This document shows positions 10,123 to 51,153 of a stretch of DNA of 64,000 bases, one piece after another. Positions within the stretch are counted from its first letter, which is position 1, and each line of letters opens with the position of its first letter. The translations under genes and the position numbers were made by a program. The stretch is from Mycobacterium sp. (GTDB lineage: Bacteria > Actinomycetota > Actinomycetes > Mycobacteriales > Mycobacteriaceae): assembly GCA_020438845.1 (NCBI GenBank), contig JAGQTV010000081.1, positions 32,216 to 96,215 on the forward strand, in the 5' to 3' direction. The notes beneath the pieces are model-generated. The model saw only the letters and a list, made by a program, of their open reading frames with translations, searched no databases and was not told where the DNA came from.

Positions 10123-12117
10123 ATGAATTCTCCCAACAGCGTCGGGCGGATCGCAGCCCTGGCGGTCGCACTGGGCGTGAGTGCCGCGGTGTCTGGCGGC
10201 GCAGGAGTCGGCTCGGCGGACCCAGGGACCCAGCAAGACACAGGCACCCAGCAAGACACCGGCACCCAGCAAGACACCAGAACAGCACCGTCGCGCGGCA
10301 CCGGACCCACCGGCAAGTCCATCCAGCGCGTGCACGGCGCCTCAGCACAGATCGGCCCTGCAGCACAGATCAATACGGACGCGGGTGGGCGGCGCGGGCC
10401 TGCCGTTCGCGAACCGGCAATTACCAGCAACTCGTCGAAAAGAGTGGCGTCGGCCGCGGCGGTCAGCCCACGGTCGGAGCTACGAAGCCGCACCTCAACC
10501 ACCGCCAGCGCTCAGGCCGGAGCCACGCCAACGGCGACCGCACCGATTAATCCCGGCCCCGATGGTCCCGCCGCGTCGATCCCCGCGGCGGTTACGGCGG
10601 TTGCCGCCCCGACCGCTGCAGCGACGGCCACCTTCGCCGCGGCCTCCGAGCTGGTCCCGCTGACAACGCCCCTCACCCGAGCTGTGGCCGCAATTCCGGC
10701 CGCCGTCGTGGACCCCGCACCGCAATTGGCTACCACGGCCCAGGCCGTTTCCGGCACAAGGACAGGTCTGGTGTCGAGAATCCTGAACCGCCTCGCGGCT
10801 CTGGGTGCCGGCTCGTCCCCCGGCGATCCGGTCGACTCGCCGGCGCTGTGGGCGCTGCTGGCCTGGGTCCGCCGGGACCGGTCCGGCACGCCCCAGCCGG
10901 CCGCCGCGGTGAGCCAGCCCAGCAGCCTGAACTCGACCCAGCTGGGCTGGGTGACCGGTCAGAAAAACAACGCCTTTCCGGGCCTGACCTGGAAGCAGGT
11001 CAACAACACCAAGTGGGCCAACGTCTATGGCACCGACCTGGGCATCATGTGGTACAACGGCGACAATGGCTTGACGCAGCTGGCCTTCGGCGACACCTTC
11101 AGCGGGGCCAACATGAGCGGCGACTGGCGCTCCAACGTGCTGCTGCTCAGCGATGACACGAATCTCACCGACGGCCTTTCGCTGATCGACACCGGACCCG
11201 CCTACCAGTTCATTCCGGCGGCACCGAACCAGGTCTTCTTCATCGGCTCGGAAGTCACCAACATTCCGACCTCGGCGCTCTACGCCAACGCCAACAACTA
11301 CGTCAGCTACATGTCGGTGAAGTCGTGGGACACCCCTGGCCGCTGGACCACCAACTACTCAGCCGTGTCGCAGTACGACCCAGCCTCCGACAAGTGGGTG
11401 CTGCAGCAATCCACCATCCGCTCGGCGGGCTGGTTCCGCGCAAGGAAGGCCTACGTCGCGGGCAACCAGAACTTCCAGCAGATGGCCTACGTACTGGAGC
11501 CGGAAAGCCAGGTGGCCCCGGGAGGCACCCGGTACGTCTACGCCTTCGGCACCCCTGCGGGCCGGGCCGGGTCGGCGTACTTGTCCCGCGTGCCGGAGGA
11601 CGCCGTCACCGACCTCAACCAGTACGAATACTGGGACGGCAGCAAGTGGGTGACGAAGCAGGCGAAAGCCGCTCCGGTCATCGGGGCCTCGACCAGATCC
11701 GGCGGGATCTTCGGCCCCATCATCGACCTGGCGAACAACCCGAAATTCTTCGGCGGCTGGTTCGCCGGGTTCACCGGGGCGAAGACCGGCGGCAACGTCA
11801 GCGAGATGTCGGTGCAGTACAACGACTACCTGGGCAAATACGTCGTGTTGTACGGAAATGGCGCCAACAACGTCATCCTCCGGACTGCCGACACCCCGGA
11901 GGGGCCGTGGTCGGATCCGATCACGATCGCAACCTCGATCCAGTACCCGGGCCTCTATGCGCCCATGATCCACCCGCTGTCCGGAACCGGCCAGTTGACC
12001 GATTCCAACGGAGACCCTGACGTCAGCAACCTGTACTGGAACATGTCGATCTGGAGCAACTACAACGTGGTGCTCATGCAAACCGACCTCACTGCACTGA
12101 AGGCCACCGTGGTGTAA
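10123..12117 (+). CDS. Exported DUF4185 protein with repeat-bearing linker
   Basis: A 664-residue exported protein. A signal peptide (about 1-33, ending GVGSADPG) is followed by about 240 residues of Ala/Thr/Pro-rich linker. The linker opens with three copies of GTQQDT. The C-terminal domain (about 280-660) matches DUF4185, with TGQKNNAFPGLTWKQVNN, YGTDLGIMWYNGD and FGDTFSGANM; the family has a five-bladed-propeller-like character and is often linked to glycan binding or hydrolysis. No catalytic residues can be named with confidence. It is followed after nine bases by another exported protein. Confidence 0.83.
   Translation: MNSPNSVGRIAALAVALGVSAAVSGGAGVGSADPGTQQDTGTQQDTGTQQDTRTAPSRGTGPTGKSIQRVHGASAQIGPAAQINTDAGGRRGPAVREPAITSNSSKRVASAAAVSPRSELRSRTSTTASAQAGATPTATAPINPGPDGPAASIPAAVTAVAAPTAAATATFAAASELVPLTTPLTRAVAAIPAAVVDPAPQLATTAQAVSGTRTGLVSRILNRLAALGAGSSPGDPVDSPALWALLAWVRRDRSGTPQPAAAVSQPSSLNSTQLGWVTGQKNNAFPGLTWKQVNNTKWANVYGTDLGIMWYNGDNGLTQLAFGDTFSGANMSGDWRSNVLLLSDDTNLTDGLSLIDTGPAYQFIPAAPNQVFFIGSEVTNIPTSALYANANNYVSYMSVKSWDTPGRWTTNYSAVSQYDPASDKWVLQQSTIRSAGWFRARKAYVAGNQNFQQMAYVLEPESQVAPGGTRYVYAFGTPAGRAGSAYLSRVPEDAVTDLNQYEYWDGSKWVTKQAKAAPVIGASTRSGGIFGPIIDLANNPKFFGGWFAGFTGAKTGGNVSEMSVQYNDYLGKYVVLYGNGANNVILRTADTPEGPWSDPITIATSIQYPGLYAPMIHPLSGTGQLTDSNGDPDVSNLYWNMSIWSNYNVVLMQTDLTALKATVV
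10225..10278. repeat. 18-bp tandem repeat, three copies
   Basis: The unit ggcacccagcaagacacc occurs three times in a row at 10225-10242, 10243-10260 and 10261-10278; the first copy differs at two positions. It encodes GTQQDT three times, directly after the signal peptide of the DUF4185 protein. Copy-number change would keep the reading frame. Confidence 0.93.
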
Positions 12118-39197: not shown

Positions 39198-39833
39198 TCA
39201 GCCGGCGTTGACACGGTCGGCGATCTGCTTCAACACTGCAGTGGCGATCCGGTCGGAATCCCCGAAATGCACCGCATCCACCCCGATCAGAATCGGGCCC
39301 ATCGCCCGATAGAGCGTCGAGCACTGCGTGAAACACACCGCCACCGTTGACCGGTCGAGTTGCTGAACATTCGGTGCCATGTTCGGCACGTGCAGGTCTG
39401 AGCACGCCGCCACGCTCGTGGCGAGACGGATCAAGGTTGCGCGCGCCGCGTCTGCGCTCGGGTAGATACCGATTGCCTGCGTAACGGCCCGGTTGGCGAC
39501 ACCGGAGTACGCGACCGTGCGGAACTGGCTGAAATTCGAGCCGAAGGCGACGTCCTGGTCGAAGAGCGGTTGACACTCACTCGGGTATTCCGAGTCGTAT
39601 TGGTGCATACCGCGAGGCTGACGCAGATCGAGATCCGGTTTGGAAGCCAGATCGGAGACCCCTACGATCGCTTCGACGTCCTCGAGACTGAGGATCAGCG
39701 AGTCCACTGATTGCGCCGGCGCCTCGGGTGCGGCGGCCGCCGTCACCGGCAGCATCCCGAACAGTCCGAGGACCAGGCAACCGACCCCAATCGCGAAGTT
39801 CCGCCAGGTTGTGCGGCTACCCGTCACTGTCAC
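39198..39833 (-). CDS. Exported PknH-like sensor-domain protein
   Basis: A 211-residue protein with an N-terminal signal/anchor (about 12-36, ending AAAAPEAPA) and a PknH extracellular-like domain (PF14032). Family features seen are the opening SLEDVEAIVG, the repeated Cys (SECQPLFD, AACSDLHV, AVCFTQCSTLY) and a DRSTVAVCF strand. It has no kinase part. In mycobacteria such free sensor domains are lipoproteins or secreted proteins of unknown ligand. GTG 39833 is the start. Confidence 0.83.
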   Translation of the reverse strand: MTVTGSRTTWRNFAIGVGCLVLGLFGMLPVTAAAAPEAPAQSVDSLILSLEDVEAIVGVSDLASKPDLDLRQPRGMHQYDSEYPSECQPLFDQDVAFGSNFSQFRTVAYSGVANRAVTQAIGIYPSADAARATLIRLATSVAACSDLHVPNMAPNVQQLDRSTVAVCFTQCSTLYRAMGPILIGVDAVHFGDSDRIATAVLKQIADRVNAG

Positions 39834-39922
39834 ACCTCGATGCCTCGTTCACGACTGCGTCCGGAAAAAGCATAATCGCCGAGGCAGCCGGTCACGGTCG
39901 CCAATTCGCCGGCCGGCCCGAA

Positions 39923-40822
39923 TCAGGAAGCCGGAGCAGGAGCCTTGGTGGTCGGAGACGCCGGGGCGGCTGCCGGAGCCGGGGTTGCTGCGGCGGCCGG
40001 CGCACTGGCCGTCGGCGCGGCAGCCGGAGCGGTGGCCGTTCCTTGCGCGGAGGGCACCTGGGCCGGGCTCGTGGCGGGCGCAGTCGTGTCGTGCACGTCC
40101 AGTGGTGCCGTGGCGGGTTTGGGCTGTGCTGCCGTCGCGGCTCCGTGCACGTCATCGGCCGCGGCGGCCGAAGCGCCCGGAACCGACTGGCCAGCGGCCT
40201 GATTGGGTGTGGCTTCGGCGGACGCGGCCCCCGCCGATCCGGTGCTCGACCCCGACTGAGGCATTCCCGACACCGACTGACCGCCGGTAGCGGGCCACGC
40301 GGCGGACCCGTTGTAACCGCTCGGGCCGGTCTCCGCGCTGGGCGGTGGCTGTACCCAGATCAGCTGATCCTGGCCATCGTCGGTGTAGACCACAGAGTCC
40401 GGGACTGCGGCGGTGACGTCGAAGTACAACTTGCCCGTGGTCGACTGTCCCTGCGCCAGGCCCGAGGGGTTGACGCCCAGAGCGGTAGGCACCTGCCACA
40501 GGGCTCGGTAGTCGTCGCCGTTGGCAGCCCGGGCGCTGAACGCCGGGATGAGAGGGATTGCACCGCCGGCAACCGCCTGATCGGTAGCCGTGGCTTCCCA
40601 CAGCACGCCACCCGGCTGATAGGGGATCGCGTCGACGCTGGGCTGCAGGCCAGTGACCGTCCAGCTCTGGACACTACCGCCGTCGACGACCTCTCCCTGC
40701 TGACCCAAGGGCTGGACCGCCGGGTCTACGCCTTCGGCCCAGGCTGCCGCTGCTCCTGCCAGCCCTGCAGCTCCCGCCGCTGCCGTGGTGATCGCGGCTG
40801 TCAGGAAACGTGCCTGTTTCAT
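39923..40822 (-). CDS. MPT63-like DUF1942 secreted protein with long Ala/Pro-rich tail
   Basis: A 299-residue exported protein. After a signal peptide (ending AAAWAEGVD), residues 30-160 match the immunogenic beta-sandwich protein MPT63: GGVLWEATATDQAVAGG, FSARAANGDDYRALWQVP, GKLYFDVTAAVPDSVVY and DQLIWVQPP. M. tuberculosis MPT63 ends there. This one adds about 140 residues of Ala/Pro/Thr/Ser-rich low complexity, which may span the cell wall. ATG 40822 gives a proper signal peptide. Function is unknown. Confidence 0.85.
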   Translation of the reverse strand: MKQARFLTAAITTAAAGAAGLAGAAAAWAEGVDPAVQPLGQQGEVVDGGSVQSWTVTGLQPSVDAIPYQPGGVLWEATATDQAVAGGAIPLIPAFSARAANGDDYRALWQVPTALGVNPSGLAQGQSTTGKLYFDVTAAVPDSVVYTDDGQDQLIWVQPPPSAETGPSGYNGSAAWPATGGQSVSGMPQSGSSTGSAGAASAEATPNQAAGQSVPGASAAAADDVHGAATAAQPKPATAPLDVHDTTAPATSPAQVPSAQGTATAPAAAPTASAPAAAATPAPAAAPASPTTKAPAPAS

Positions 40823-40987
40823 GGTGCTCCCGTGCTGATTCCGCGACCGCCACTCGGCCGCCGGCGAAATGCACAGTAGCAAAACCGCGAGGCGCATAAG
40901 CCCAGTTGAAGACAGCCGGAACGGTCGCTCGGGCTACGCGCTGCAACATCAACCGCAGGTCTTGAGCACCCGGTGGCGGGGACCAGG

Positions 40988-41770
40988 TTATTTCTTGTGG
41001 CTAAGGCCCACGTGCTCGGGGATCGGAGGCGTAGAGATGTCGCCCAGATACGGATATGACAAATCCAGTACCAGGAAAATATTCACCGCCACCAGCACGC
41101 TGACGGTGAGCACGATGGCGTGATGCAAGCGCGAACTTTCGACGCCGTAGGTGATCGCCGCTCCCAGAACCAACCCGCTGGTGACCAGGACGACCAGCCA
41201 CAGCGGCCAGTTCGCCCCCTGATGGTTCTTGGCTTGCATCAGTCGCTGGGTCCGCGATGTGCTCATGGTTTCGAGGTTGCCGATCATGGTGCTTCGAAAG
41301 TCCTGTTGGATCGGGTCAGAGGCGGGCACTTCCCTGATCGTTTGATAGAGCTGTTTCAGCGCCAGATCGGCTTGCGGGGAGGCTTCGCCGCGCGAGGCGA
41401 GCGGCCACTCGGCGAGAATCGCCTGCTCGTAATTCCTGAGGCTGGCCATGACCCGCTCAGCGTCTGGCGGGTCGAAGGCGAACCGGTCGCGGGCAATCTG
41501 CACGCCAGCCGCAGTTTCTGCCCTGACCAATCCGTCGCCGGTGGTGACCTCGTTCCAGAGACCATTTGCGACAAAACCAACGAAGAACGCGTAAACGAAG
41601 CCAACCACGCCGTAGGCGAATTTCAGGGCATCGTTGTGCTCATCGGTCCGCAGTTGCGGAAACCGGCGGCGCAGAAGCAGGCCGACGATCGTGGCAGTTC
41701 CCGCAGTTAGGACGACAAGACCAAGCAGGATAAGCCAGGACGGAACATTGACGATGATCCATAGGGCTAT
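40988..41770 (-). CDS. DUF4239 membrane protein without a standard start codon
   Basis: A four-helix membrane protein of the DUF4239 (bestrophin-like) group, about 260 residues if read from 41770. The family-type N-terminus is fully in frame: NVPSWLILLGLVVLTAG, then RRRFPQLRTDEHNDALKFAY and GFVYAFFVGFVANGLWNEVTT. Yet between the upstream stop (TAA) and residue 55 there is no ATG, GTG or TTG. The first standard codon, GTG 41608, would delete the first helix. The codon ATA at 41770, followed by GCC CTA TGG, stands where an ATG is expected. The gene may use ATA, or its start has been lost. Confidence 0.75.
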   Translation of the reverse strand: MALWIIVNVPSWLILLGLVVLTAGTATIVGLLLRRRFPQLRTDEHNDALKFAYGVVGFVYAFFVGFVANGLWNEVTTGDGLVRAETAAGVQIARDRFAFDPPDAERVMASLRNYEQAILAEWPLASRGEASPQADLALKQLYQTIREVPASDPIQQDFRSTMIGNLETMSTSRTQRLMQAKNHQGANWPLWLVVLVTSGLVLGAAITYGVESSRLHHAIVLTVSVLVAVNIFLVLDLSYPYLGDISTPPIPEHVGLSHKK

Positions 41771-41963: not shown

Positions 41964-42091
41964 GGGCAACGGCTGGTGCTCTGCGCCGCAATTTGTGCAT
42001 CTAGCCGCATCCGGTGGGCACTAATATCGCTGTTCGGACCCAAGGTATATGGCCTTGAGATTCGAATGATCCACGACGGGAGTTGAGGCAC

Positions 42092-43438
42092 TTGAGGAGA
42101 GTTGCCGCAGCGACGTTGGCCGTGGCATTCGCCCTCACCAGCGCTCCGCCGGCTACCGCCCTGGAACCGCCGGTGATCGACCCCGGCGCGACTCCGCCGG
42201 ATGCGACCGGACCCGACCATCCCACTGAGCAGCGCCGCCAATGCGCCACACCACAGACGCTGCCGAATTCCAATTTCGCCGACGCGCCCTGGGGTAACTC
42301 CTACCTGCGGGTCGCCGATGCGCACCGGTTCGCCACCGGGGCGGGAGTCACGGTAGCGGTCATTGACACCGGCGTCATGGGGTCGCCGCGTGTACCCGCG
42401 CAACCCGGCGGTGACTTCGTCACGGGCGGCGGTGACGGGATGTCGGACTGCGACGCCCACGGGACCTTGACCGCGTCCATCATCGCGGGCCGCCCGGCCC
42501 CCACCGATGCTTTCGTGGGCGTCGCCCCCGACGCCAAAATCCTTTCGCTGCGTCAAACTTCCGAGGCTTTCCTGCCGGTCGGGATGCAGGTCGATCCCAA
42601 CGATCCCAACAGTTCGCCGACAGCGGGTTCACTGCGCAGCCTGGCCAGGGCCATCGTGCACGCCGCCAATCTCGGCGCCGGTGTCATCAACGTCAGCGAG
42701 GCGGCCTGCTACAAGGTGACCCGGCCGATCGACGAACGCGGCCTGGGGGCCGCGGTCAATTACGCGACCAACGTCAAGAACTCCGTGATCGTCGTCGCCG
42801 CAGGCAACACCGGCCGGGATTGCAGTCAGAACCCGCCGCCGAATGCGGCCGTGACCTCTGACCCACGCGGCTGGCAGGGAGTCCAGACCATCGTCTCCCC
42901 CGCCTGGTATGCACCACTGGTTCTCACTGTCGGGGGCATCGGCCAGAACGGCGCACCCTCCAGCTTTTCGATGACCGGGCCCTGGTTGGGGGCGGCGGCA
43001 CCGGCGGAGAACATTGTCGCTCTCGGTTTCGACGGGAAGCCGGTCAACGCCCTGCAGGGCCAGGACGGCCCCATCCCGATCAACGGCACATCATTCGCGG
43101 CGGCTTACGTATCTGGCGTGGCTGCGCTTGTGCGGCAACGATTTCCCCAACTGACGGCAACCCAGGTGATCAACCGGGTGATGTCGACGGCCCGCCATCC
43201 AGGAGGTGGGATCGACAACGTGGTCGGCGCCGGGGTGGTGGATCCGGTTGCCGCATTGACCTGGGACATCCCGGCCGGCCCCGCAACACCGGAATATCGG
43301 ATCAACGAATTGCCGCCGCCCCCACCGGTGCAGCCGCCCGATCGCGGTCCCATCACGGCGGTGGTCCTGATCGGCGCGGGTGCGTTGTTCGCGGTGGCCC
43401 TCGGCATGGCTGCCCGCCGAGCGTTGGGCCGGAAATGA
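42092..43438 (+). CDS. mycP1: Mycosin protease of ESX-1
   Basis: A 448-residue membrane-anchored subtilisin-like protease of type VII secretion. It has a signal peptide (ending PATALEPP), the catalytic triad in TVAVIDTGVMG (Asp), DCDAHGTLTASII (His) and INGTSFAAAYVSG (Ser), a Pro-rich linker, and a C-terminal membrane helix (about 415-440). It stabilises the secretion complex and cleaves EspB. TTG 42092 has GGGAG nine bases upstream; an in-frame TTG at 42083 is also possible. It leads the operon mycP1-eccE1-espB-espL and overlaps eccE1 as ATGA. Confidence 0.93.
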   Translation: MRRVAAATLAVAFALTSAPPATALEPPVIDPGATPPDATGPDHPTEQRRQCATPQTLPNSNFADAPWGNSYLRVADAHRFATGAGVTVAVIDTGVMGSPRVPAQPGGDFVTGGGDGMSDCDAHGTLTASIIAGRPAPTDAFVGVAPDAKILSLRQTSEAFLPVGMQVDPNDPNSSPTAGSLRSLARAIVHAANLGAGVINVSEAACYKVTRPIDERGLGAAVNYATNVKNSVIVVAAGNTGRDCSQNPPPNAAVTSDPRGWQGVQTIVSPAWYAPLVLTVGGIGQNGAPSSFSMTGPWLGAAAPAENIVALGFDGKPVNALQGQDGPIPINGTSFAAAYVSGVAALVRQRFPQLTATQVINRVMSTARHPGGGIDNVVGAGVVDPVAALTWDIPAGPATPEYRINELPPPPPVQPPDRGPITAVVLIGAGALFAVALGMAARRALGRK

Positions 43439-44823
43439 CCGCATCGGTCCTGGGTCTAAAACTCGCGACCGGCCAGGCTCTGGTCGCAGCAGCTGTCGCA
43501 CCGGCACTGCTTGCACTGGGTGCAGCGATGGGCCGGCTATGGCTGGGAATAGTGTTGAGCGTTCTCGCTCTGGGGCTGGGTCTGGTGGCGGTCCGTGGCC
43601 GGACCGCCACCGGCTGGGTCCGGGCTCTTTATTCGTGGCAGCGCCGCCGGATGGCCGCGCCGCCGGCGCCGTCGGAACCGGTCGTGGGCGCTACCGTCAT
43701 GCCCGGCGACCACGTCGCGGTGCGTTGGCACGATCAGGAAATGGTCGCGCTCATCGAGCTGGTTCCGCGGCCGTACACCCCGAGCGTGATGGTTGACCAC
43801 CACTGCTTCACCGACGACGTCATTGACACCGCCCTGGTGGAGCGACTGCTCGACGCCCATTGCCCCGACCTGGAGGCTGATGTGATCTCGGCCGGCTACC
43901 GGGTGGGCAAGACCGCGCCGGCCGGGGTCGTCTCGCTCTATGAGCAGATGATCGGCACGCTCCCGGCCCCGGCGCACCGGCGTACCTGGGTTCAACTGCG
44001 GGCCGATCCCGAGCGCACCCGCCGGTCTGCTCAGCGCCGCGCGGAGGGCGTCGCAGGCTTGGCGCGCTACCTCGTCGCATCGACTACCCGGATCGCCGAC
44101 CAGTTGGCCGAACACAACGTCGACGCCCGCTGCTCCCGCAGTTTCGATGACTTCGACCAGGCGACCGCGGTGAGCTTCGAAAATGAGCTGTGGTCGGCAA
44201 TCAAGGGCCGCAGCACTTTCACCGCCGCCTACAGCGCACCCGGCGGGCCGGATGTGTGGTGGTCGGCGCGGGCTGATCACACCATCACCCGCGTCACCGT
44301 GAAGCCCGCAAGCGCGCCCACTTCGACGGTCCTGCTGACCACACTGAGCACACCGACATCACCGCGCGGGTTTTCACGACTGTTTGGCGGGCAGCGTGCC
44401 GCGCTGGCCGGGGTCAGCCCGGTGACAGACCAGCACCATGAGCTACCCATCGGCTCGGCCGGTGTCCTCATCGGAGAGACCACTGAGCGCCATCCGGTAT
44501 TTCTACCGTTCGACGACGTCGACAACCGGATCATCGTCGGCGACGGACTGGTGTTCAGCCAGTTCATGGTGCGGTCCGCGGCCGCAGGAGCGGTGGTGAC
44601 CGTGGATGCACGGCTGCGGGAGTTCGGCAGCATGGTCAACGCCCGGTTCGGGGAGCCGAGGTTGACTTGGCCCGGCGCCACAACGTATTTCGCTCCGCAC
44701 CACCGAGTCGGTCAGGTGACTCTTCACCGCAATTACATCGCCACCCCGCGGCATGGCAAGCTGCCCATCCGTCTAGTGCAGCCCAGGGAAGAAAGCCGCT
44801 ACGCCGATGCCCTCAAACGCTGA
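43435..44823 (+). CDS. eccE1: Type VII secretion protein EccE (ESX-1)
   Basis: A 462-residue membrane protein with two N-terminal helices (about 12-52) and a large periplasm-facing domain. EccE sits at the rim of the ESX membrane complex next to EccB, EccC and EccD. Identification rests on the helix pattern, length, a VRWHDQEMVALIELVPRPYT block early in the domain, and position between mycP and espB as in M. tuberculosis Rv3882c. Its partners EccB, EccC and EccD are not in this window. Confidence 0.9.
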   Translation: MTASVLGLKLATGQALVAAAVAPALLALGAAMGRLWLGIVLSVLALGLGLVAVRGRTATGWVRALYSWQRRRMAAPPAPSEPVVGATVMPGDHVAVRWHDQEMVALIELVPRPYTPSVMVDHHCFTDDVIDTALVERLLDAHCPDLEADVISAGYRVGKTAPAGVVSLYEQMIGTLPAPAHRRTWVQLRADPERTRRSAQRRAEGVAGLARYLVASTTRIADQLAEHNVDARCSRSFDDFDQATAVSFENELWSAIKGRSTFTAAYSAPGGPDVWWSARADHTITRVTVKPASAPTSTVLLTTLSTPTSPRGFSRLFGGQRAALAGVSPVTDQHHELPIGSAGVLIGETTERHPVFLPFDDVDNRIIVGDGLVFSQFMVRSAAAGAVVTVDARLREFGSMVNARFGEPRLTWPGATTYFAPHHRVGQVTLHRNYIATPRHGKLPIRLVQPREESRYADALKR

Positions 44824-44844
44824 GTCCGATAGGTCGAACGAGCA

Positions 44845-46509
44845 ATGACCAGCCCGCTGAACTTCACACCTGACGCGATACGCAACGACGCGGCGGCCAT
44901 TGCCGCGCTGCCCATGCACGCCGAGTTCGTCCAGGTATTGGCACCATGCGCCCTGGACTCGGCCGAATCGGCGGCGTCGACACTGAACCGGGATGCCGAA
45001 AACTTGATCGACGAGCAGAATCAACTGACCGAGGAACGTAACCGGATCTGTGACTACATGTGCGAGGGGGCGTCGAGGTATATGGGGACCGTCGAGGCAT
45101 CCGCCGAGGCGTTGAACGGAACCGTGGGCGGTGGTGCCGGCATGTCCACCGCGGGTTCGGCCCCCCTGACTCCGCCTAGCCTCAATCCGTTCTTTCCCCC
45201 TCTTCCCCGGCGTCCACTCACTCCCCCACCTGCGGCCACCGCACCAGGTGGGTACAGCGAGGTGCCCACCACCGAGGCTGCCATCTCCGCCCCCGACACC
45301 GGAACGTCGCTGGGCGCGGCACTCACCGCATGGATGGCCAACGCTTCGACCCTTCAGTCCACGGCAGCCGCCTTGCCCATGGCGTTCAGCGACTGGGAAG
45401 GCAGGGCCGCCGAGGCTGCCTCGGCCCGTATTCGCGCCCTCAAGGCCAAATTGATGACGTTGGCGGAGGACTGGCAAGCGCTTGCCGCCAAGGGCAACGG
45501 CTTCCTCGGGGCACATACGGCCCTGAAGGCGAGCCACCACAGCGTGTACGAGGAGTATGTCGCGTTGAAGTTGGCCTGGGAGCAGGCATTCAAAAACAAC
45601 AACGCGGATGCGTTGGCTGCCATCACCCAGCGACTGCAGCAGACCCAACAAGAGTCCGACGAAATCCGCCGAGAGTATGAGCAGGCCGCCCAGCTGCCGC
45701 CGGGACCAGTCCCGCACGATTCAGGGGGTAAGTCCACCACTTCCGAGTCGGGGGGTCGCCCGACGCAACGGGGCAACCGCGAGCAGCGCTCGATCGGAAA
45801 CTCTGCTGCTGCAAGCGATTCCGGAGAAATCGGCCCGTCGCCAGGCACCCGGCCGGGCCAGCCCGGTTCGGGAAGTCCTGACGCCACTGGGGCGCCGACC
45901 CGGCCTGAGAGCCTTCCCGAAGGAAACGAAGGCAAGCAGTTGGGTCAACCGCCTTCTGGCGGGGCACCGCCCGGTGGGCTGCCCTCCGGTGGGCCTCCGC
46001 CCGGGGCCGGGATGCCCGGGGGGCTGCCTGGCACAATGCCCGGCGCCGGAACTCCTGAGCCCAAGCCACTTTCGCCGCCTGCGGGCGCAGGCGGCGGAAA
46101 GGGTGGTGGCGGTGCCGGTGCAGGCGGTGGCGGCAAAGGTGCGGGTGGCGGAATGGGCGGAAGGCCGCTTTCGCCCGCGGCGGTCGCAGTCGGACCCACT
46201 CCCACTTCCCAAGGCGCGGGTCCCGGTCCGGGAACACCCGATCGCGCACCCGTCGGAACTGGTGCCGTCGGCGCCGGAATGCCGATGATGGGCCATGGCG
46301 CGGGACACAACCAGGGCAAGGAGAAGAAGCGTTCGCCGGAACGCTCGCCGGACGAGAGCGTCTACACCGAGGACCGGCCCTGGACGGAAGGCGTTGTGGG
46401 GCACAGTCGCCGGGAAGTACAGGGCCGCCGGGAGCCAACACCGGCAAGCCGGGCAATTCAAGGTCGCCGGGAGGCGGAGGGCGACCACGGATCAAAGGAC
46501 ACCACATGA
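44845..46509 (+). CDS. espB: EspB-like ESX-1 secreted substrate
   Basis: A 554-residue EspB homologue by position and build. The N-terminal 290 residues form the PE/PPE-like helical bundle; the WxG turn is in FSDWEGRAAEAAS. A Gly/Pro-rich region (about 330-480) follows, then a charged tail. The usual YxxxD/E export motif is not clear: the aligned region reads SRYMGTVEASAEAL, which puts Val where Asp is expected and Glu one place later. EspB is exported by ESX-1, trimmed by MycP1 and forms ring oligomers. It starts 21 bases after eccE1 and overlaps espL as ATGA. Confidence 0.87.
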   Translation: MTSPLNFTPDAIRNDAAAIAALPMHAEFVQVLAPCALDSAESAASTLNRDAENLIDEQNQLTEERNRICDYMCEGASRYMGTVEASAEALNGTVGGGAGMSTAGSAPLTPPSLNPFFPPLPRRPLTPPPAATAPGGYSEVPTTEAAISAPDTGTSLGAALTAWMANASTLQSTAAALPMAFSDWEGRAAEAASARIRALKAKLMTLAEDWQALAAKGNGFLGAHTALKASHHSVYEEYVALKLAWEQAFKNNNADALAAITQRLQQTQQESDEIRREYEQAAQLPPGPVPHDSGGKSTTSESGGRPTQRGNREQRSIGNSAAASDSGEIGPSPGTRPGQPGSGSPDATGAPTRPESLPEGNEGKQLGQPPSGGAPPGGLPSGGPPPGAGMPGGLPGTMPGAGTPEPKPLSPPAGAGGGKGGGGAGAGGGGKGAGGGMGGRPLSPAAVAVGPTPTSQGAGPGPGTPDRAPVGTGAVGAGMPMMGHGAGHNQGKEKKRSPERSPDESVYTEDRPWTEGVVGHSRREVQGRREPTPASRAIQGRREAEGDHGSKDTT

Positions 46510-46859
46510 CGGCTGGCGACGGCCTGCCCCCCGACATGCACCCCGATGTGGCAGCCATCCTCCGAGAGGCCAAGCGACTCGAGGACGTCCTCGAGGAAAG
46601 ACTTCACCAAATTCGCACGGGTCGATTCACCGCCTCCGACGAGGCGGGCACCGTGGAGGTCACCTTGGACGGCCAGCACCGTATCGTCGATGTCTTCATC
46701 GCCGAAGGTGCTCTGCGAAAAGGCATTTCGGCGGTCGAAGATGCCGTCAACGAAGCCTTGGTCAAAGCCAACGCAGAAGTGGACGCCTCAGCGTCGGCAG
46801 CCTCGGTCAAAATCAACGAGGTGGTGGCCGAGATCACCGGGCGCCCTGGCGCGATCTAG
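46506..46859 (+). CDS. espL: EspL, YbaB/EbfC-like ESX-1 protein
   Basis: A 117-residue cytoplasmic protein of the YbaB/EbfC fold with the helix-strand-strand-helix pattern: EAKRLEDVLEERLHQIRTG, then DEAGTVEVTLDGQHRIVDVF and a long helix. In M. tuberculosis, EspL (Rv3880c) stabilises EspE, EspF and EspH. ATGA overlap with espB shows coupling. In M. tuberculosis espK follows; here the next gene, 250 bases away, is an unrelated M19-like peptidase. Confidence 0.87.
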   Translation: MTAGDGLPPDMHPDVAAILREAKRLEDVLEERLHQIRTGRFTASDEAGTVEVTLDGQHRIVDVFIAEGALRKGISAVEDAVNEALVKANAEVDASASAASVKINEVVAEITGRPGAI

Positions 46860-47066
46860 GACGGCTTTAGCCCCTCTGGGACGGATTTCTCGCGGAATGC
46901 CGGTTTAGCTGGTTGTTGATAAGCCACAGTGTCTGTCCTGATATTGGGTCTCGCCTCGGGTTCCATATGTCGAGCGGTGGGCACCTCGCAGGCGAAGACT
47001 CGGCGGCCTTGAGCTGAAACAACCCAGCGCGGCCCGACTCGCGCTGGTCTCGCGGTGGCGAGCCGT

Positions 47067-47098
47067 TTGAGTCTCCCCCGCCCGCATTAGTTTATGGT
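47067..47098 (+). promoter_or_regulatory. Possible promoter of the M19-like gene
   Basis: TTGAGT (47067-47072) and TATGGT (47093-47098) are separated by 20 bases, slightly long. The coding GTG is 12 bases downstream of the -10. The rest of the 250-base gap after espL shows no gene or hairpin. Confidence 0.3.
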
Positions 47099-47110
47099 TA
47101 CGTTGTTCCT

Positions 47111-48328
47111 GTGACTCAGGGTCCCCCAAAGGCCGCGTCCCAGAACGAACTCAATTTGATCGCTGCCAGCTTCGAGGAAAGCCCGACCTATCTGGCGACC
47201 TACCGGGCCTCCGACAGGGCTAGGGCGTTGTGTCGAGAAGCACTTCTGTTGGACACACTGTTCTCCGGCGTGTACCCGCTGCAGTGGAGGAACGACGATC
47301 AGTTCGACTCGGTGATGGACGACATGATCGCCACCGGATTCGATGTCCTGGGGATGTGCACTGGCGCCGACTCAGCCGGTTCTGATCCAGGTGTGGTCCT
47401 GCGAGCCGCTCGCTTCTACGCCAAGAAGGTCTACGCGAACCCCACCAGGTACCAATTCGTCAGAACGGCGCGTGAAATCCGCGAGGCGAGGCTGGCTGGA
47501 AGGCTGGCCATCTACCTCACGCATCAGGGCACGAACGTTCTCCAGGGAAACGTCGACAACGTGGCGCTTCTCAAAGCCCTGGGCTACGGCTACTGCTTGC
47601 TCGTCTACAACGTGCGAAACGCCGTCGGCGGTGGCTGCGCCGAGCCTGATGACCCTGGCCTGTCCGGGTACGGTCGGAATGTCGTGCGGGCCTTCAACAA
47701 GTACGGCATGGTGGTCGACGTCAACCACACCGGAAACAGGACCGCTCTAGACGCCTGCGAGGTCAGCACCAAACCTGTGATCTTCTCCCACTCAGGTGCC
47801 CAGGGCGTTTATCCGGCATTCCGGAATTGCACCGACGAACTCATCAGGGCTATCGCTGAGACCGGCGGGGTCTGTTCGATGTTCGGCACGGGCGCCTACA
47901 TCGACCCGGCCAACCCGCCGTTCGTCGGGCCGCAGATCCTCTTTGAGCACTTCGATTACATGTGTCAGCTACACGGCAACGCCGATCACGTGGGCTACGG
48001 CTCGGACTTTATCCCGGATATGACCCAGACGATGAAGCTGGTCCTGGCCAACCCCGCCACCTACCCAGACGGGGCCGGGATGAAGCCCGGGACAACGCGG
48101 AAGGCCATCGAGATGTACGGCCCCACCGCCAACCCGGCGCGGATCCTGCCGGCGCTCGTTGATCAGTTTCTCGACCATGGATACGCCGAGGAGGACATTC
48201 ACAAGATCCTCGGCGGCAACATGATGCGTGTCTTCGATGAGGTCTGGGATGGCGCCGAGGTTGAGGTCGGCACCGAATCAGCCCTGACTCTTGAATCCGT
48301 CTTCCACGAATTGGGTGCCCCGAACTAG
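47111..48328 (+). CDS. Divergent M19 membrane-dipeptidase-like protein
   Basis: A 405-residue amidohydrolase-fold protein of peptidase family M19. Three metal-site elements are kept: MVVDVNHTG, VIFSHSGAQG and VGYGSDFIPD. The N-terminal HxD pair of classic dipeptidases is absent: the matching region reads ALLLDTLFSGVYPLQW. The bridging Glu region (YLTHQGTNVLQG) is also changed. The active site may therefore hold one metal or a different reaction. No signal peptide is visible, so it is likely cytoplasmic. GTG 47111 is the start. Confidence 0.8.
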   Translation: MTQGPPKAASQNELNLIAASFEESPTYLATYRASDRARALCREALLLDTLFSGVYPLQWRNDDQFDSVMDDMIATGFDVLGMCTGADSAGSDPGVVLRAARFYAKKVYANPTRYQFVRTAREIREARLAGRLAIYLTHQGTNVLQGNVDNVALLKALGYGYCLLVYNVRNAVGGGCAEPDDPGLSGYGRNVVRAFNKYGMVVDVNHTGNRTALDACEVSTKPVIFSHSGAQGVYPAFRNCTDELIRAIAETGGVCSMFGTGAYIDPANPPFVGPQILFEHFDYMCQLHGNADHVGYGSDFIPDMTQTMKLVLANPATYPDGAGMKPGTTRKAIEMYGPTANPARILPALVDQFLDHGYAEEDIHKILGGNMMRVFDEVWDGAEVEVGTESALTLESVFHELGAPN

Positions 48329-48380
48329 CGAGGTAGCTGAGCTCGACCTCAGCAGCCCGGTCGTTGGGGCCGCCCTCGGG

Positions 48381-49025
48381 ATGTGCACAATCGTGAGCGT
48401 GAACAACCGTTGGAAGACCGGTCGTTTGGAGGCCTTCAGCGACGGTGTTTTCGCTATCGCAATCACTCTGCTGGTCTTGGAGATAGATATTCCGGACAGC
48501 GGCTTCGATAACCTCTGGGCGGGCGTTCTCAGCCAGTGGCCCTCCTACCTCGCCTATGTGACCAGCTTCCTGACGATCGGCGTGACATGGCTGCATCACC
48601 ACTTGATCTTTCGCCGTACCGCATGGCTGGACTCCATGGTGATGCGCCTGAACCTGCTGTTGCTGATGTTGGTGGCGTTCCTGCCGTTTCCGACCATGCT
48701 CATGGCCAGGGGGCTCGATAAGACGACCGACGCCGAACGGGTGGCCGTCGTCTTCTACGGGATTGTGTTGCTGGTGATCGCCGTGACAATGTTCGCGATC
48801 TGGCATCAAGCCACTCGCCGCCAGCTACTTGAACCGAATGTCACCGACGCGGAGGTGCGGGCGGTAACCCGCCTTACCCTGCCCATCGTGGGCTATAACG
48901 TGGCCGTCGTCGTCGTCGCACTCTTCGCGCCGAAGGCGGCCGTTTTCGGATACCTGCTGATCGCCCTGGTTGCGCTGTTCCGCCAGCACGGTGAGATATA
49001 CGAACCATCCGAGAGCGGTGATTGA
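48381..49025 (+). CDS. TMEM175-type potassium channel (DUF1211)
   Basis: A 214-residue six-helix membrane protein. Helix 1 has the family signature GRLEAFSDGVFAIAITLLVLE, including FSD and the pore-lining Ile/Leu residues. Bacterial TMEM175 proteins form tetrameric K+-selective channels without a classic selectivity filter. ATG 48381 or GTG 48393 may start translation; neither has a strong ribosome binding site. It lies 52 bases after the M19-like gene. Confidence 0.85.
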   Translation: MCTIVSVNNRWKTGRLEAFSDGVFAIAITLLVLEIDIPDSGFDNLWAGVLSQWPSYLAYVTSFLTIGVTWLHHHLIFRRTAWLDSMVMRLNLLLLMLVAFLPFPTMLMARGLDKTTDAERVAVVFYGIVLLVIAVTMFAIWHQATRRQLLEPNVTDAEVRAVTRLTLPIVGYNVAVVVVALFAPKAAVFGYLLIALVALFRQHGEIYEPSESGD

Positions 49026-49148
49026 ACAGCTCCGAAGGGGCCATCGGATCCGCTTGCCGCCGGACCTATCCCGGCCCCGGACCGCGGCCGCGTCTATCGA
49101 TGCGATCGAAGAGGCTTACTAGGCCGATCGAGGCCCTTCTGCGCCGAT

Positions 49149-51056
49149 CTAGTCGATAGGTTCACTAACCGACTCGTCGCGGGCACCCAACGCCGCCACC
49201 CAACCGGTGACCTGGCGGGCTACGTTCCGTTCGGTCAGCCCGACCTCGTCAAGTACTTGACTACGACTGGCGTGGTCCAAGAACCGTTGTGGCACACCGA
49301 CATCGCGACATGGGATGTCGATATCGGCGGCTCGCAGCGCTGCCGAGACCGACGATCCGACTCCGCCCCGCACACCGTTGTCCTCGATCGTGACCACTAG
49401 CTTGTGCGAGCGGGCAAGCGGGAGCAGCGCCTCCGGAACTGGCAGCACCCAGCGCGGGTCCACCACCGTAACCCCGATGCCCTGGTTGCGCAGGCGCTCG
49501 GCAACCTTGAGCGTCATACCCGCGAACGCCCCGACCGCGACCAGCAGAACGTCGTGGCCCAACCCGTCTGCTGGACGCGCCAGGACGTCCACCCCCGCGA
49601 CTCGGTCAACAGCCGGGATGTCTTCGCCGACATCACCTTTCGGGAAGCGCAGCGCAGTTGGGCCGTCCTTGACGTCAAGCGCCTCGCCGAGTTCCTCCCT
49701 GAGTCGGGCACCGTCCCGGGGTGCCGCAACCCGCATGCCCGGGACGATGTTGAGAATCGACAGGTCCCACATGCCGTTGTGACTGGCCCCGTCGTTGCCG
49801 GTCACCCCCGCACGATCAAGCACGAGGGTCACAGGCAGCCGGTGAAGCGCGACGTCCATGAGGACTTGATCGAACGCCCGGTTGATGAAAGTCGAATAGA
49901 TCGCCACCACGGGGTGCATGCCGCCCATCGCCAACCCGGCGGCTGAGGTCATTGCGTGCTGCTCGGCAATGCCGACATCGAAGAGCCGGTCTGGGTAGTG
50001 CTCCCCGAACGCAGCCAGTCCGGTTGGGCCCGGCATGGCCGCGGTGATCGCGACGATGTCGCGACGCTTGGCTGCGCAGCCGATCAGCGCGTCGGAGAAC
50101 ACCGCAGTCCAACCCGGCGCCGAAGCGGTGGCAGCCTGCCCGGTGCGCGGGTCGATCACCCCACAGGCGTGCATCTGCTCAGCCTCGTCATTCTCGGCCG
50201 GCGCATACCCCATGCCCTTGCGGGTAACCACGTGCACGAGGACTGGCCCCTGGAAACCACGCGCGTGCCGTAGCGCATTCTCTACGGCATGCTCGTCGTG
50301 GCCGTCGATCGGACCGACGTACTTCAAGCCCAGGTCGGTGAACATGGTCTGGGGCGCCACCGCATCCTTGATACCGGCCTTGACGCTGTGCAAGGCCTGG
50401 TAGGCAACCTCTCCGAGGATCGGCAGAGCCCGCACGACGTTGCGGCCCTGGTCCAGCAAACGCTCGTATCCCGGTTGCAGCCGGAGTCCGGCCAGGTGGT
50501 CAGCCAGGCCTCCGATGGTCGGCGCGTAACTGCGACCGTTGTCATTGATAACGATGACCACGGGCCGCTGCGCCGCAGCGATGTTGTTCAATGCCTCCCA
50601 GCACATACCCCCGGTAAGGGCGCCGTCCCCCACGACGGCCACCACGTGGCGGTTGGTCTGTCCGGTCAACTCGAACGCCTTGGCCAGCCCGTCGGCATAG
50701 GACAGGGCAGCCGAGGCGTGACTCGACTCGACCCAGTCGTGCTTGCTTTCGGTACGCGACGGATAACCGGACAGTCCGTCCTTCATCCGCAGAGTGTCGA
50801 ACCGGTCGAGACGGCCGGTCAGCATCTTGTGGACGTAGGCCTGATGTCCGGTGTCGAAGATGATCGGGTCGTGGGGCGAATCGAACACTCGGTGCAGCGC
50901 CAGTGTGAGTTCGACGACACCGAGATTAGGCCCCAGGTGCCCACCCGTGGCGGCGACTTTGTGGATGAGGAACTCACGGATTTCGGCGGCCAACTCGGTG
51001 AGCTGTTCTTGGGAAAGTCGCTGCAGATCGGCTGGACCGCGGACCTTCTCGAGCAT
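49149..51056 (-). CDS. dxs: 1-deoxy-D-xylulose-5-phosphate synthase
   Basis: A 635-residue thiamine-diphosphate enzyme, the first step of the non-mevalonate isoprenoid pathway. ThDP-binding is seen in [20 protein letters not shown] and the following VVIVINDNG; the catalytic His/Glu regions are in [17 protein letters not shown] and [15 protein letters not shown]. It is close to M. tuberculosis Dxs1 over its whole length. It feeds the carotenoid genes at the left of this window as well as menaquinone and polyprenol synthesis. ATG 51056 is preferred over the preceding ATG 51059. Confidence 0.97.
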
Positions 51057-51153
51057 CAACTCAGTCTACGCACCTTCCGTGGCGCTCTCTTGGCATATGC
51101 CCGGGTATCACATGGCGGCCCCGGGCCCTGGCCACGACCGTTCGGTGAGGAGT

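What the first reader, a model, noticed from the sequence alone, without database searches (positions are those of the whole stretch)
42092..46859. Detached ESX-1 end block: mycP1-eccE1-espB-espL without espK or the core genes
In M. tuberculosis these four genes stand in this order and are followed by espK, with the eccA-D and esxAB core nearby. Here espL is followed by an M19-like peptidase and the dxs block, and the left side is a DUF4239 gene. So the ESX-1 locus is split, or this is a second, partial set. If the core lies elsewhere, its assembly needs proteins from two sites; if not, EspB, EccE and MycP would be orphans with a new use.
Basis: partly seen in the sequence, partly recalled or inferred. 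Interest (0 to 1): 0.72.

Follow-up and report, generated by a model that had tools for sequence, protein, structure and literature searches.

The report
Secretion system scattered by two inversions
In this mycobacterium the genes of one protein-secretion machine, normally side by side, lie in three separate places, apparently because two chromosome flips broke the cluster between its gene groups while its core parts stayed intact.

Summary
In detail: window 42083-46859 encodes MycP1, EccE1, EspB and an EspL-like YbaB protein, with no ESX-1 core beside them. The core is not missing. It lies mid-contig at two other places: C25 (espE, EspF-like, regulator, espG1, espH, eccA1, eccB1, eccCa1, eccCb1) and C112 (PE35, PPE68, esxB, esxA, espI, eccD1, espJ-like). 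So ESX-1 is in three pieces. Comparison with the nearest relative found (a Lake Loclat MAG, 93% EccCb1 identity) and with distant mycobacteria explains both breaks as inversions. Inversion 1 joined espL to dxs and espJ to the rnd side; the Loclat MAG shares it. Inversion 2 joined eccCb1 to dacB2 and PE35 to Rv2915c/ffh; it was seen only in the window genome. The machine genes are under purifying selection like housekeeping genes, so the likeliest reading is one working ESX-1 assembled from three unlinked operons. Detachment of this end block alone is not unique: in 12 of 58 genomes with both genes on one contig, mycP1 is 67-239 kb from eccCb1. The eccCb1/PE35 break was seen in none of 87 other loci. 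Secretion itself is untested. In passing: no ESX-3 or ESX-4 was detected in this genome.

The parts
42083..43438 (+). mycP1, membrane-anchored mycosin protease of ESX-1
   Evidence: TIGR03921 389 bits; best PDB matches are MycP1 structures, 677 bits; 92% identical to Loclat copy, dN/dS 0.06
43435..44823 (+). eccE1, ESX membrane-complex component
   Evidence: TIGR03923 258 bits, PF11203; dN/dS 0.08 against Loclat copy
44845..46509 (+). espB, ESX-1 secreted PE-PPE-like protein with Pro/Gly-rich tail; WxG at residue 184, no YxxxD/E motif
   Evidence: PF21856, PF18625; EspB structures matched; motifs
46506..46859 (+). espL-like YbaB/EbfC-family gene
   Evidence: PF02575; 83% identical copy in same position in Loclat
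46860..49148 (.). junction of inversion 1 (espL end joined to dxs end); here it also holds an M19 peptidase (47111-48328 +) and a TMEM175-family channel gene (48291-49025 +), both absent at this place in Loclat
   Evidence: In Loclat the espL match ends at 10961 and the dxs match begins at 10969 of L120; Pfam
49149..51059 (-). dxs, the neighbour on the far side of breakpoint 1; faces rnd across 1.1-1.8 kb in other mycobacteria inspected
   Evidence: TIGR00204 635 bits; rnd|dxs neighbourhood in two of two other genomes inspected
40988..41608 (-). Bestrophin-like (DUF4239) gene, left neighbour of mycP1
   Evidence: PF14023 149 bits

Best explanation
The window block is the mycP1-eccE1-espB-espL operon of the genome's only ESX-1 system. 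Two chromosomal inversions, each with one breakpoint inside an ancestral single ESX-1 locus, scattered it into three gene groups. Inversion 1 (ancestor of window genome and Loclat MAG): breakpoints espJ|espL and rnd|dxs, giving espJ|rnd-side and espL|dxs. Inversion 2 (window genome's lineage): breakpoints eccCb1|PE35 and dacB2|Rv2915c, giving eccCb1|dacB2 and PE35|Rv2915c. Each piece keeps a whole transcription unit (unit boundaries are inferred from gene order and strand), so the proteins are made from three sites and the EccBCDE1 complex, with MycP1 associated, assembles after synthesis. Shown: the gene content, the junctions, the ancestral adjacencies in relatives, the low dN/dS. Inferred: that the events were inversions rather than some other exchange giving the same junctions, that each unit is transcribed from its own promoter, that the complex assembles and secretes, and that EspB is still a substrate.
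For: Core pieces lie mid-contig on C25 (35,616 bp) and C112 (80,766 bp), identified by profiles and by PDB matches for EccCb1 and EccD1. In Loclat one contig holds espE to espJ contiguously and then the nitroreductase-rnd-hemE side, and another holds mycP1-eccE1-espB-espL next to dxs: the same site as the window. In two of two distant genomes inspected (G002, G118) rnd faces dxs across 1.1-1.8 kb and the window's genes beyond dxs are colinear. In eight of eight genomes inspected, Loclat included, a dacB2-type gene and rpsP lie on the Rv2915c/ffh side: in six the dacB2-type gene is within 0.7 kb of Rv2915c, in two (G087, G099) it is 3.6-4.7 kb away with kinase-like genes between. In the window genome these two ends are apart, one joined to eccCb1 and one to PE35. 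The two new junctions share no match longer than 15 bp. Sequence upstream of PE35 in Loclat aligns with the DNA upstream of the window genome's PE35, while the Loclat alignment with C25 stops at the eccCb1 stop, which places the break just there. dN/dS against Loclat: mycP1 0.06, eccE1 0.08, eccA1 0.07, eccB1 0.09, eccCa1 0.07, eccCb1 0.05, eccD1 0.10, esxB 0.05; comparators dxs 0.08, ffh 0.06, glnD 0.10.
Against: The window genome is a 118-contig assembly; nothing closes the chromosome, so distances and inversion sizes are unknown. Inversion 2 rests on one assembly (two reciprocal junctions), and only one close relative was found. espB (dN/dS 0.37), espE (0.29), espH (0.26), espJ-like (0.21) and esxA (0.19, few changes) score higher; window EspB lacks the YxxxD present in Loclat and espK was not recognised at either junction, so EspB export may be weakened or changed. 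The roughly 470 bp between mycP1 and its left neighbour do not align with Loclat beyond about the last 30 bp, so no conserved promoter was shown for the window operon. In Loclat and here extra genes lie between espJ and rnd that are not between rnd and dxs elsewhere. Low dN/dS shows constraint over the divergence from Loclat, not function after inversion 2.
Confidence: 0.82

Rival explanations
1. Assembly or binning artefact: the ESX-1 locus is intact in the organism and the assembler mis-joined contigs.
For: 118 contigs, estimated contamination 2.41%; ESX regions hold paralogous genes that can confuse assemblers.
Against: The block's site next to dxs is also found in the separate Loclat assembly. 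The second break shows two reciprocal junctions that share no match longer than 15 bp, which independent mis-joins would hardly give. All three pieces lie inside contigs, not at their ends.
Confidence: 0.08
2. The dispersed ESX-1 is a decaying system: the splits are tolerated because the machine is no longer needed.
For: espB, espE, espH and espJ-like evolve fast; window EspB lacks YxxxD; espK not recognised at the junctions; ESX-1 losses in other mycobacterial lineages are reported (PMC4791881, passages read).
Against: The membrane and ATPase genes have open frames in both genomes and dN/dS 0.05-0.10, like the comparators (no stop inside the matches); the mycosin Asp/His/Ser signature motifs (recalled) are present in the translation printed. 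Fast evolution of EspB may be normal: among 147 other genomes searched, no match of 400 residues or more exceeded 42% identity.
Confidence: 0.12
3. The window block is an orphan or second partial set with a new use, independent of an ESX-1 complex.
For: It stands alone in the window.
Against: Two mycosin loci, two EccD and two ESX-type EccC loci in the genome; the other set, ESX-2/5-like, has its own mycP and eccE. The pieces on C25 and C112 lack precisely mycP and eccE. In relatives where the end is visible, the same block ends the ESX-1 locus.
Confidence: 0.02

Closest known systems
ESX-1 locus of other mycobacteria (e.g. M. aurum L030, M. neoaurum L032)
   Same: Same order inside each piece: espG1-espH-eccA1-eccB1-eccCa1-eccCb1, PE35-PPE68-esxB-esxA-espI-eccD1, and mycP1-eccE1-espB-espL in opposite orientation.
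   Different: There one locus within about 22 kb; here three pieces on three contigs.
   Same: mycP1 stands 67-83 kb from eccCb1 in 10 genomes and 204-239 kb in 2 more.
   Different: Eleven of these twelve keep mycP1 downstream and convergent. Of the four I inspected (G011, G118, G141, G162) none has the block next to dxs and eccCb1-PE35 is intact. A core-gene tree puts G011, G118, G130 and G162 in another group than the window genome.
Split ESX-2 of the M. avium complex (transposed EccB2-EccC2; Newton-Foot et al. 2016, PMC4791881, passages read)
   Same: An ESX locus with eccB-eccC parted from the rest; this genome's ESX-2/5-like set is parted likewise (C110 and C1).
   Different: That concerns ESX-2; here ESX-1 too is broken between eccCb1 and PE35.

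Membership tests
ESX-1 type VII secretion system | EccB, EccC (as separate EccCa and EccCb), EccD and EccE of the ESX-1 type | tested here: met
   EccB PF05108, split EccCa/EccCb, EccD and EccE profiles; PDB best matches EccCb1 and EccD1
ESX-1 type VII secretion system | MycP1 mycosin | tested here: met
   677 bits to MycP1 structures against 356 for mycosin-5
ESX-1 type VII secretion system | EsxA/EsxB pair, PE35, PPE68 and Esp proteins (E, F-like, G1, H, I, B, L-like) | tested here: met
   WXG100, PE, EspA_EspE, EspC, EspG, EspB and YbaB families; PPE68, EspH and EspI by position and by tblastn to relatives only
ESX-1 type VII secretion system | EspK, chaperone of EspB in M. tuberculosis (PMC9811218, abstract read) | tested here: inconclusive
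   Not recognised beside espL or espJ in the window genome or Loclat; no EspK query was run, locally or genome-wide
ESX-1 type VII secretion system | Genes in one contiguous locus (usual, not essential) | tested here: not met
   Three mid-contig sites on C25, C112 and C62
ESX-1 type VII secretion system | Secretes EsxA/EsxB/EspB | not testable with these tools
   Needs a cultured strain

The most novel reading that the evidence does not exclude
A functional ESX-1 nanomachine is built from three chromosomally unlinked operons, made by two successive inversions at transcription-unit boundaries, in a mycobacterial lineage that has also dispensed with ESX-3 and ESX-4; co-localisation of T7SS genes would then be unnecessary for assembly, and the three sites offer a natural test of whether the subunits must be made together.
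Probability: 0.5. Interest if true: 0.6.

Novelty: new variant of a known kind. Interest (0 to 1): 0.45.

Why it matters
T7SS membrane complexes are multi-subunit assemblies usually encoded as one locus, and MycP1 is needed for the stability of the EccBCDE1 complex in M. marinum (PMC5082899, abstract read). A lineage that keeps these parts under strong selection while encoding them at three sites argues that operon-level co-expression is not required, and marks where natural transcription-unit boundaries lie. It also warns that 'partial' ESX loci in draft genomes should not be called orphan or deleted without a genome-wide search.

Tried and rejected
Rejected: 'orphan set' (own-genome counts); 'second copy' (one MycP1, one EccCb1); 'the split is unique'; 'ESX-3' for the second set (EccC closest per length to EccC2, EccD matches EccD5 and not EccD3 at E 0.001, mycosin closest to mycosin-5); 'PE35 break through a repeat' (no match longer than 15 bp between the junctions); 'truncated espG in the second set' (a start miscall by my gene finder; the frame runs on upstream).

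Weak or negative: the 13-base string upstream of PE35 shared by window genome and Loclat is only partly conserved in 87 loci (7 with 0-2 mismatches, 21 with 3, 59 with 4-6; one mononucleotide shuffle per locus gave 0, 1 and 85, and one with 7), so an own promoter for that unit is suggested, not shown. No conserved promoter region was found before mycP1. A plasmid search with the block gave 38 records, all in the 60-80% identity band; the 20 listed all match under mycP or S8-peptidase annotations.

Papers: eight searches, several with capped lists. In their titles and shown abstract starts I saw no report of a three-piece ESX-1 or of a mycobacterium naturally without ESX-3, but I opened only four papers, as passages or abstract, and most subscription papers are not held. 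One search failed on a file format and was rerun.

Full report
WHAT IS IN THE WINDOW. Window 42083-46859 (+) carries mycP1, eccE1, espB and an EspL-like YbaB gene, overlapping or closely spaced. PDB sequence matches specify MycP1 (677 bits; mycosin-5 356) and EspB. Left neighbours on the minus strand are Bestrophin-like, DUF1942 and PknH_C-domain genes; right neighbours are an M19 peptidase, a TMEM175-family gene and dxs. The window ends at the end of contig C62 (96,215 bp), but the block is 17 kb inside that end.

WHERE THE REST IS. The genome (G000, 4.53 Mb, 118 contigs, completeness 99.78, contamination 2.41) has two mycosin loci, two EccD loci and two ESX-type EccC loci; weak EccC hits on a third contig stay far below the cut-off. 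ESX-1 piece A is on C25: espE, an EspC-family gene (EspF-like), an HTH_3 regulator, espG1, espH, eccA1, eccB1, eccCa1, eccCb1, then a small open frame on the other strand, dacB2-type genes, rpsP and its usual neighbours. Piece B is on C112: PE35, PPE68, esxB, esxA, espI, eccD1, an espJ-like gene, then a decarboxylase, a gene without Pfam match, a nitroreductase, rnd and hemE; on the PE35 side Rv2915c-like and ffh. Names of the Rv type and rnd, hemE, dacB2, ffh, rpsP, espJ, espH and espI come from my recall of the M. tuberculosis map and from synteny; only some were checked by Pfam. A second ESX set, ESX-2/5-like, is itself parted: eccB-eccC on C110, and PE-PPE-esx-esx-espG-eccD-mycP-eccE-eccA on C1.

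THE NEAREST RELATIVE. A genome-contig scan with EccCb1 found 125 relatives and kept 80 loci; the best is a MAG from Lake Loclat (93%), the next 80%. In Loclat one 56-kb contig holds the kinase, espE to eccCb1, PE35 to eccD1 and espJ without interruption, then nitroreductase, rnd, b193 and hemE; another, 19 kb, holds mycP1-eccE1-espB-espL directly followed by dxs. So the window's end-block site is shared by two separately assembled genomes, and the eccCb1|PE35 break is not.

INVERSION 1. In the two distant genomes I inspected (G002, G118) hemE, b193 and rnd stand in a row facing dxs across 1.8 and 1.1 kb, and the window's genes beyond dxs follow colinearly. In 56 of 58 genomes with eccCb1 and mycP1 on one contig, mycP1 is downstream of eccCb1 and convergent with it. 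Old adjacencies espJ|espL and rnd|dxs became espJ|rnd-side and espL|dxs, which on one circle is an inversion; the alternative pairing would have excised a circle. The nitroreductase and a further gene now between espJ and rnd, in both genomes, are not between rnd and dxs in G002 or G118. Of the 80 loci, 16 show espL, eccE1 or mycP1 at 40% identity or more inside the fetched stretch; the other 64 end too early or lack it.

INVERSION 2. In eight of eight genomes inspected (Loclat, G173, G011, G118, G087, G053, G099, G002) Rv2915c and ffh lie on one side and dacB2-type genes and rpsP on the other; in six the nearest dacB2-type gene is within 0.7 kb of Rv2915c, in G087 and G099 it is 4.7 and 3.6 kb away with kinase-like genes between. 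In the window genome dacB2 is joined to eccCb1 and Rv2915c to PE35. The break lies just after the eccCb1 stop, and the junctions share no match longer than 15 bp. In 87 of 87 loci examined (80 named plus 7 unnamed, three of which are the same as named ones) PE35 or PPE68 follows eccCb1 by 104-354 bp.

HOW UNUSUAL IS THE DETACHED BLOCK. Among 148 genomes of the genus, eccCb1 was found in 86 and mycP1 in 88 at E up to 1e-150. Both occur in 86; in 58 they share a contig: 46 within 5.9-25.1 kb and 12 at 67-239 kb. The 28 on different contigs include the window genome and cannot be judged in general. Of six of these that I fetched, one (G019) has eccD1 and espL about 6 kb apart, one (G043) is undecided at a contig end, and four (G060, G068, G130, G154) have the block more than 20 kb inside a contig on which eccCb1 was not found. 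The SZAS-8 MAG (G173) has its block on a 122-kb contig and its core on a 54-kb one. A tree of five core proteins (70 rows: 69 of 87 loci plus the window genome; the other 18 lacked a full gene; quick method) pairs the window genome with Loclat (support 100) and puts G011, G118, G130 and G162 in a group of 16 rows (support 90) elsewhere. I did not test the number of independent detachments formally.

IS IT STILL A MACHINE. dN/dS against Loclat is 0.05-0.10 for mycP1, eccE1, eccA1, eccB1, eccCa1, eccCb1, eccD1, esxB and PE35; 0.10-0.12 for the regulator, espG1, espI, PPE68 and espL; 0.19 for esxA; 0.37 for espB, 0.29 espE, 0.26 espH, 0.21 espJ-like. Comparators: dxs 0.08, ffh 0.06, glnD 0.10, sdr 0.10, Rv2915c 0.11, rnd 0.14, rpsP and dacB2 0.14; mycP2 and eccE2 of the second set 0.28 and 0.30 (Nei-Gojobori, my script; dS 0.35-1.9, so partly saturated). 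The ESX-1 machine genes are thus about as constrained as ordinary chromosomal genes and more than the two tested genes of the second set. Since the ESX-1 complex consists of EccBCDE1 and needs MycP1 for stability in M. marinum (PMC5082899, abstract), the proteins from all three sites must meet. EspB may be the weak point: its YxxxD is lost here but present in Loclat and in all 12 of 12 relatives that have residues at that place, Loclat included (2 more rows had gaps), and no espK was recognised at the junctions; EspK keeps EspB monomeric in M. tuberculosis (PMC9811218, abstract).

KNOWN CONTEXT. Newton-Foot et al. 2016 (PMC4791881, passages) report that eccE and mycP of ESX-1 are inverted in most cases, that the M. 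[quoted passage not shown] leprae, which lost ESX-4. The window genome departs from the last statement as far as these profiles can tell. Against a firm claim: G019, 99% complete, also gave only two mycosin matches, and the window genome holds two further WXG100 genes above cut-off on C86 and C49 that I did not follow.

VERDICT. Real, well explained, a new arrangement of a known system. The mechanism of the split is firm for inversion 1 and good for inversion 2; preserved function is an inference from constraint.

Noticed in passing
whole genome G000; ESX-2/5-like set at C110 (L015) and C1 (L016): No ESX-3 or ESX-4 was detected: two mycosin loci, two EccD, two ESX-type EccC and two PE genes; Loclat also shows only two mycosin loci with a MycP1 query. 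[quoted passage not shown] leprae for ESX-4. G019 also shows only two mycosin matches.
   Followed up: partly
L015 7662-13240 and L016 9490-18900: The second ESX set (ESX-2/5-like) is also parted between eccC and PE, on two contigs, and gives dN/dS about 0.3 for mycP2 and eccE2.
   Followed up: partly
window 44845-46509: EspB has lost the YxxxD motif (reads YMGTV) that 12 of 12 alignable relatives keep; its WxG is intact.
   Followed up: partly
window 47111-49025: An M19 dipeptidase-family gene and a TMEM175-family channel gene sit between espL and dxs here but not in Loclat, where espL and dxs nearly touch.
   Followed up: partly
L012 9009-9782 (C25): An HTH_3-domain regulator lies between the EspF-like gene and espG1; related genes lie upstream of espG1 in many of the 80 ESX-1 loci.
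   Followed up: no
L017 5385-7991 (C112): An Orn/Lys/Arg decarboxylase-family gene stands between the espJ-like gene and the nitroreductase; Loclat lacks it there but has a piece of a relative at the end of its mycP1 contig.
   Followed up: no
window 39198-40897: A PknH_C-domain protein and a DUF1942 protein, both minus strand, neighbour the block; Loclat keeps both.
   Followed up: no
G000 C86:192645-192887 and C49:2649-2900: Two further WXG100-family genes above cut-off, in longer frames and outside both ESX sets.
   Followed up: no
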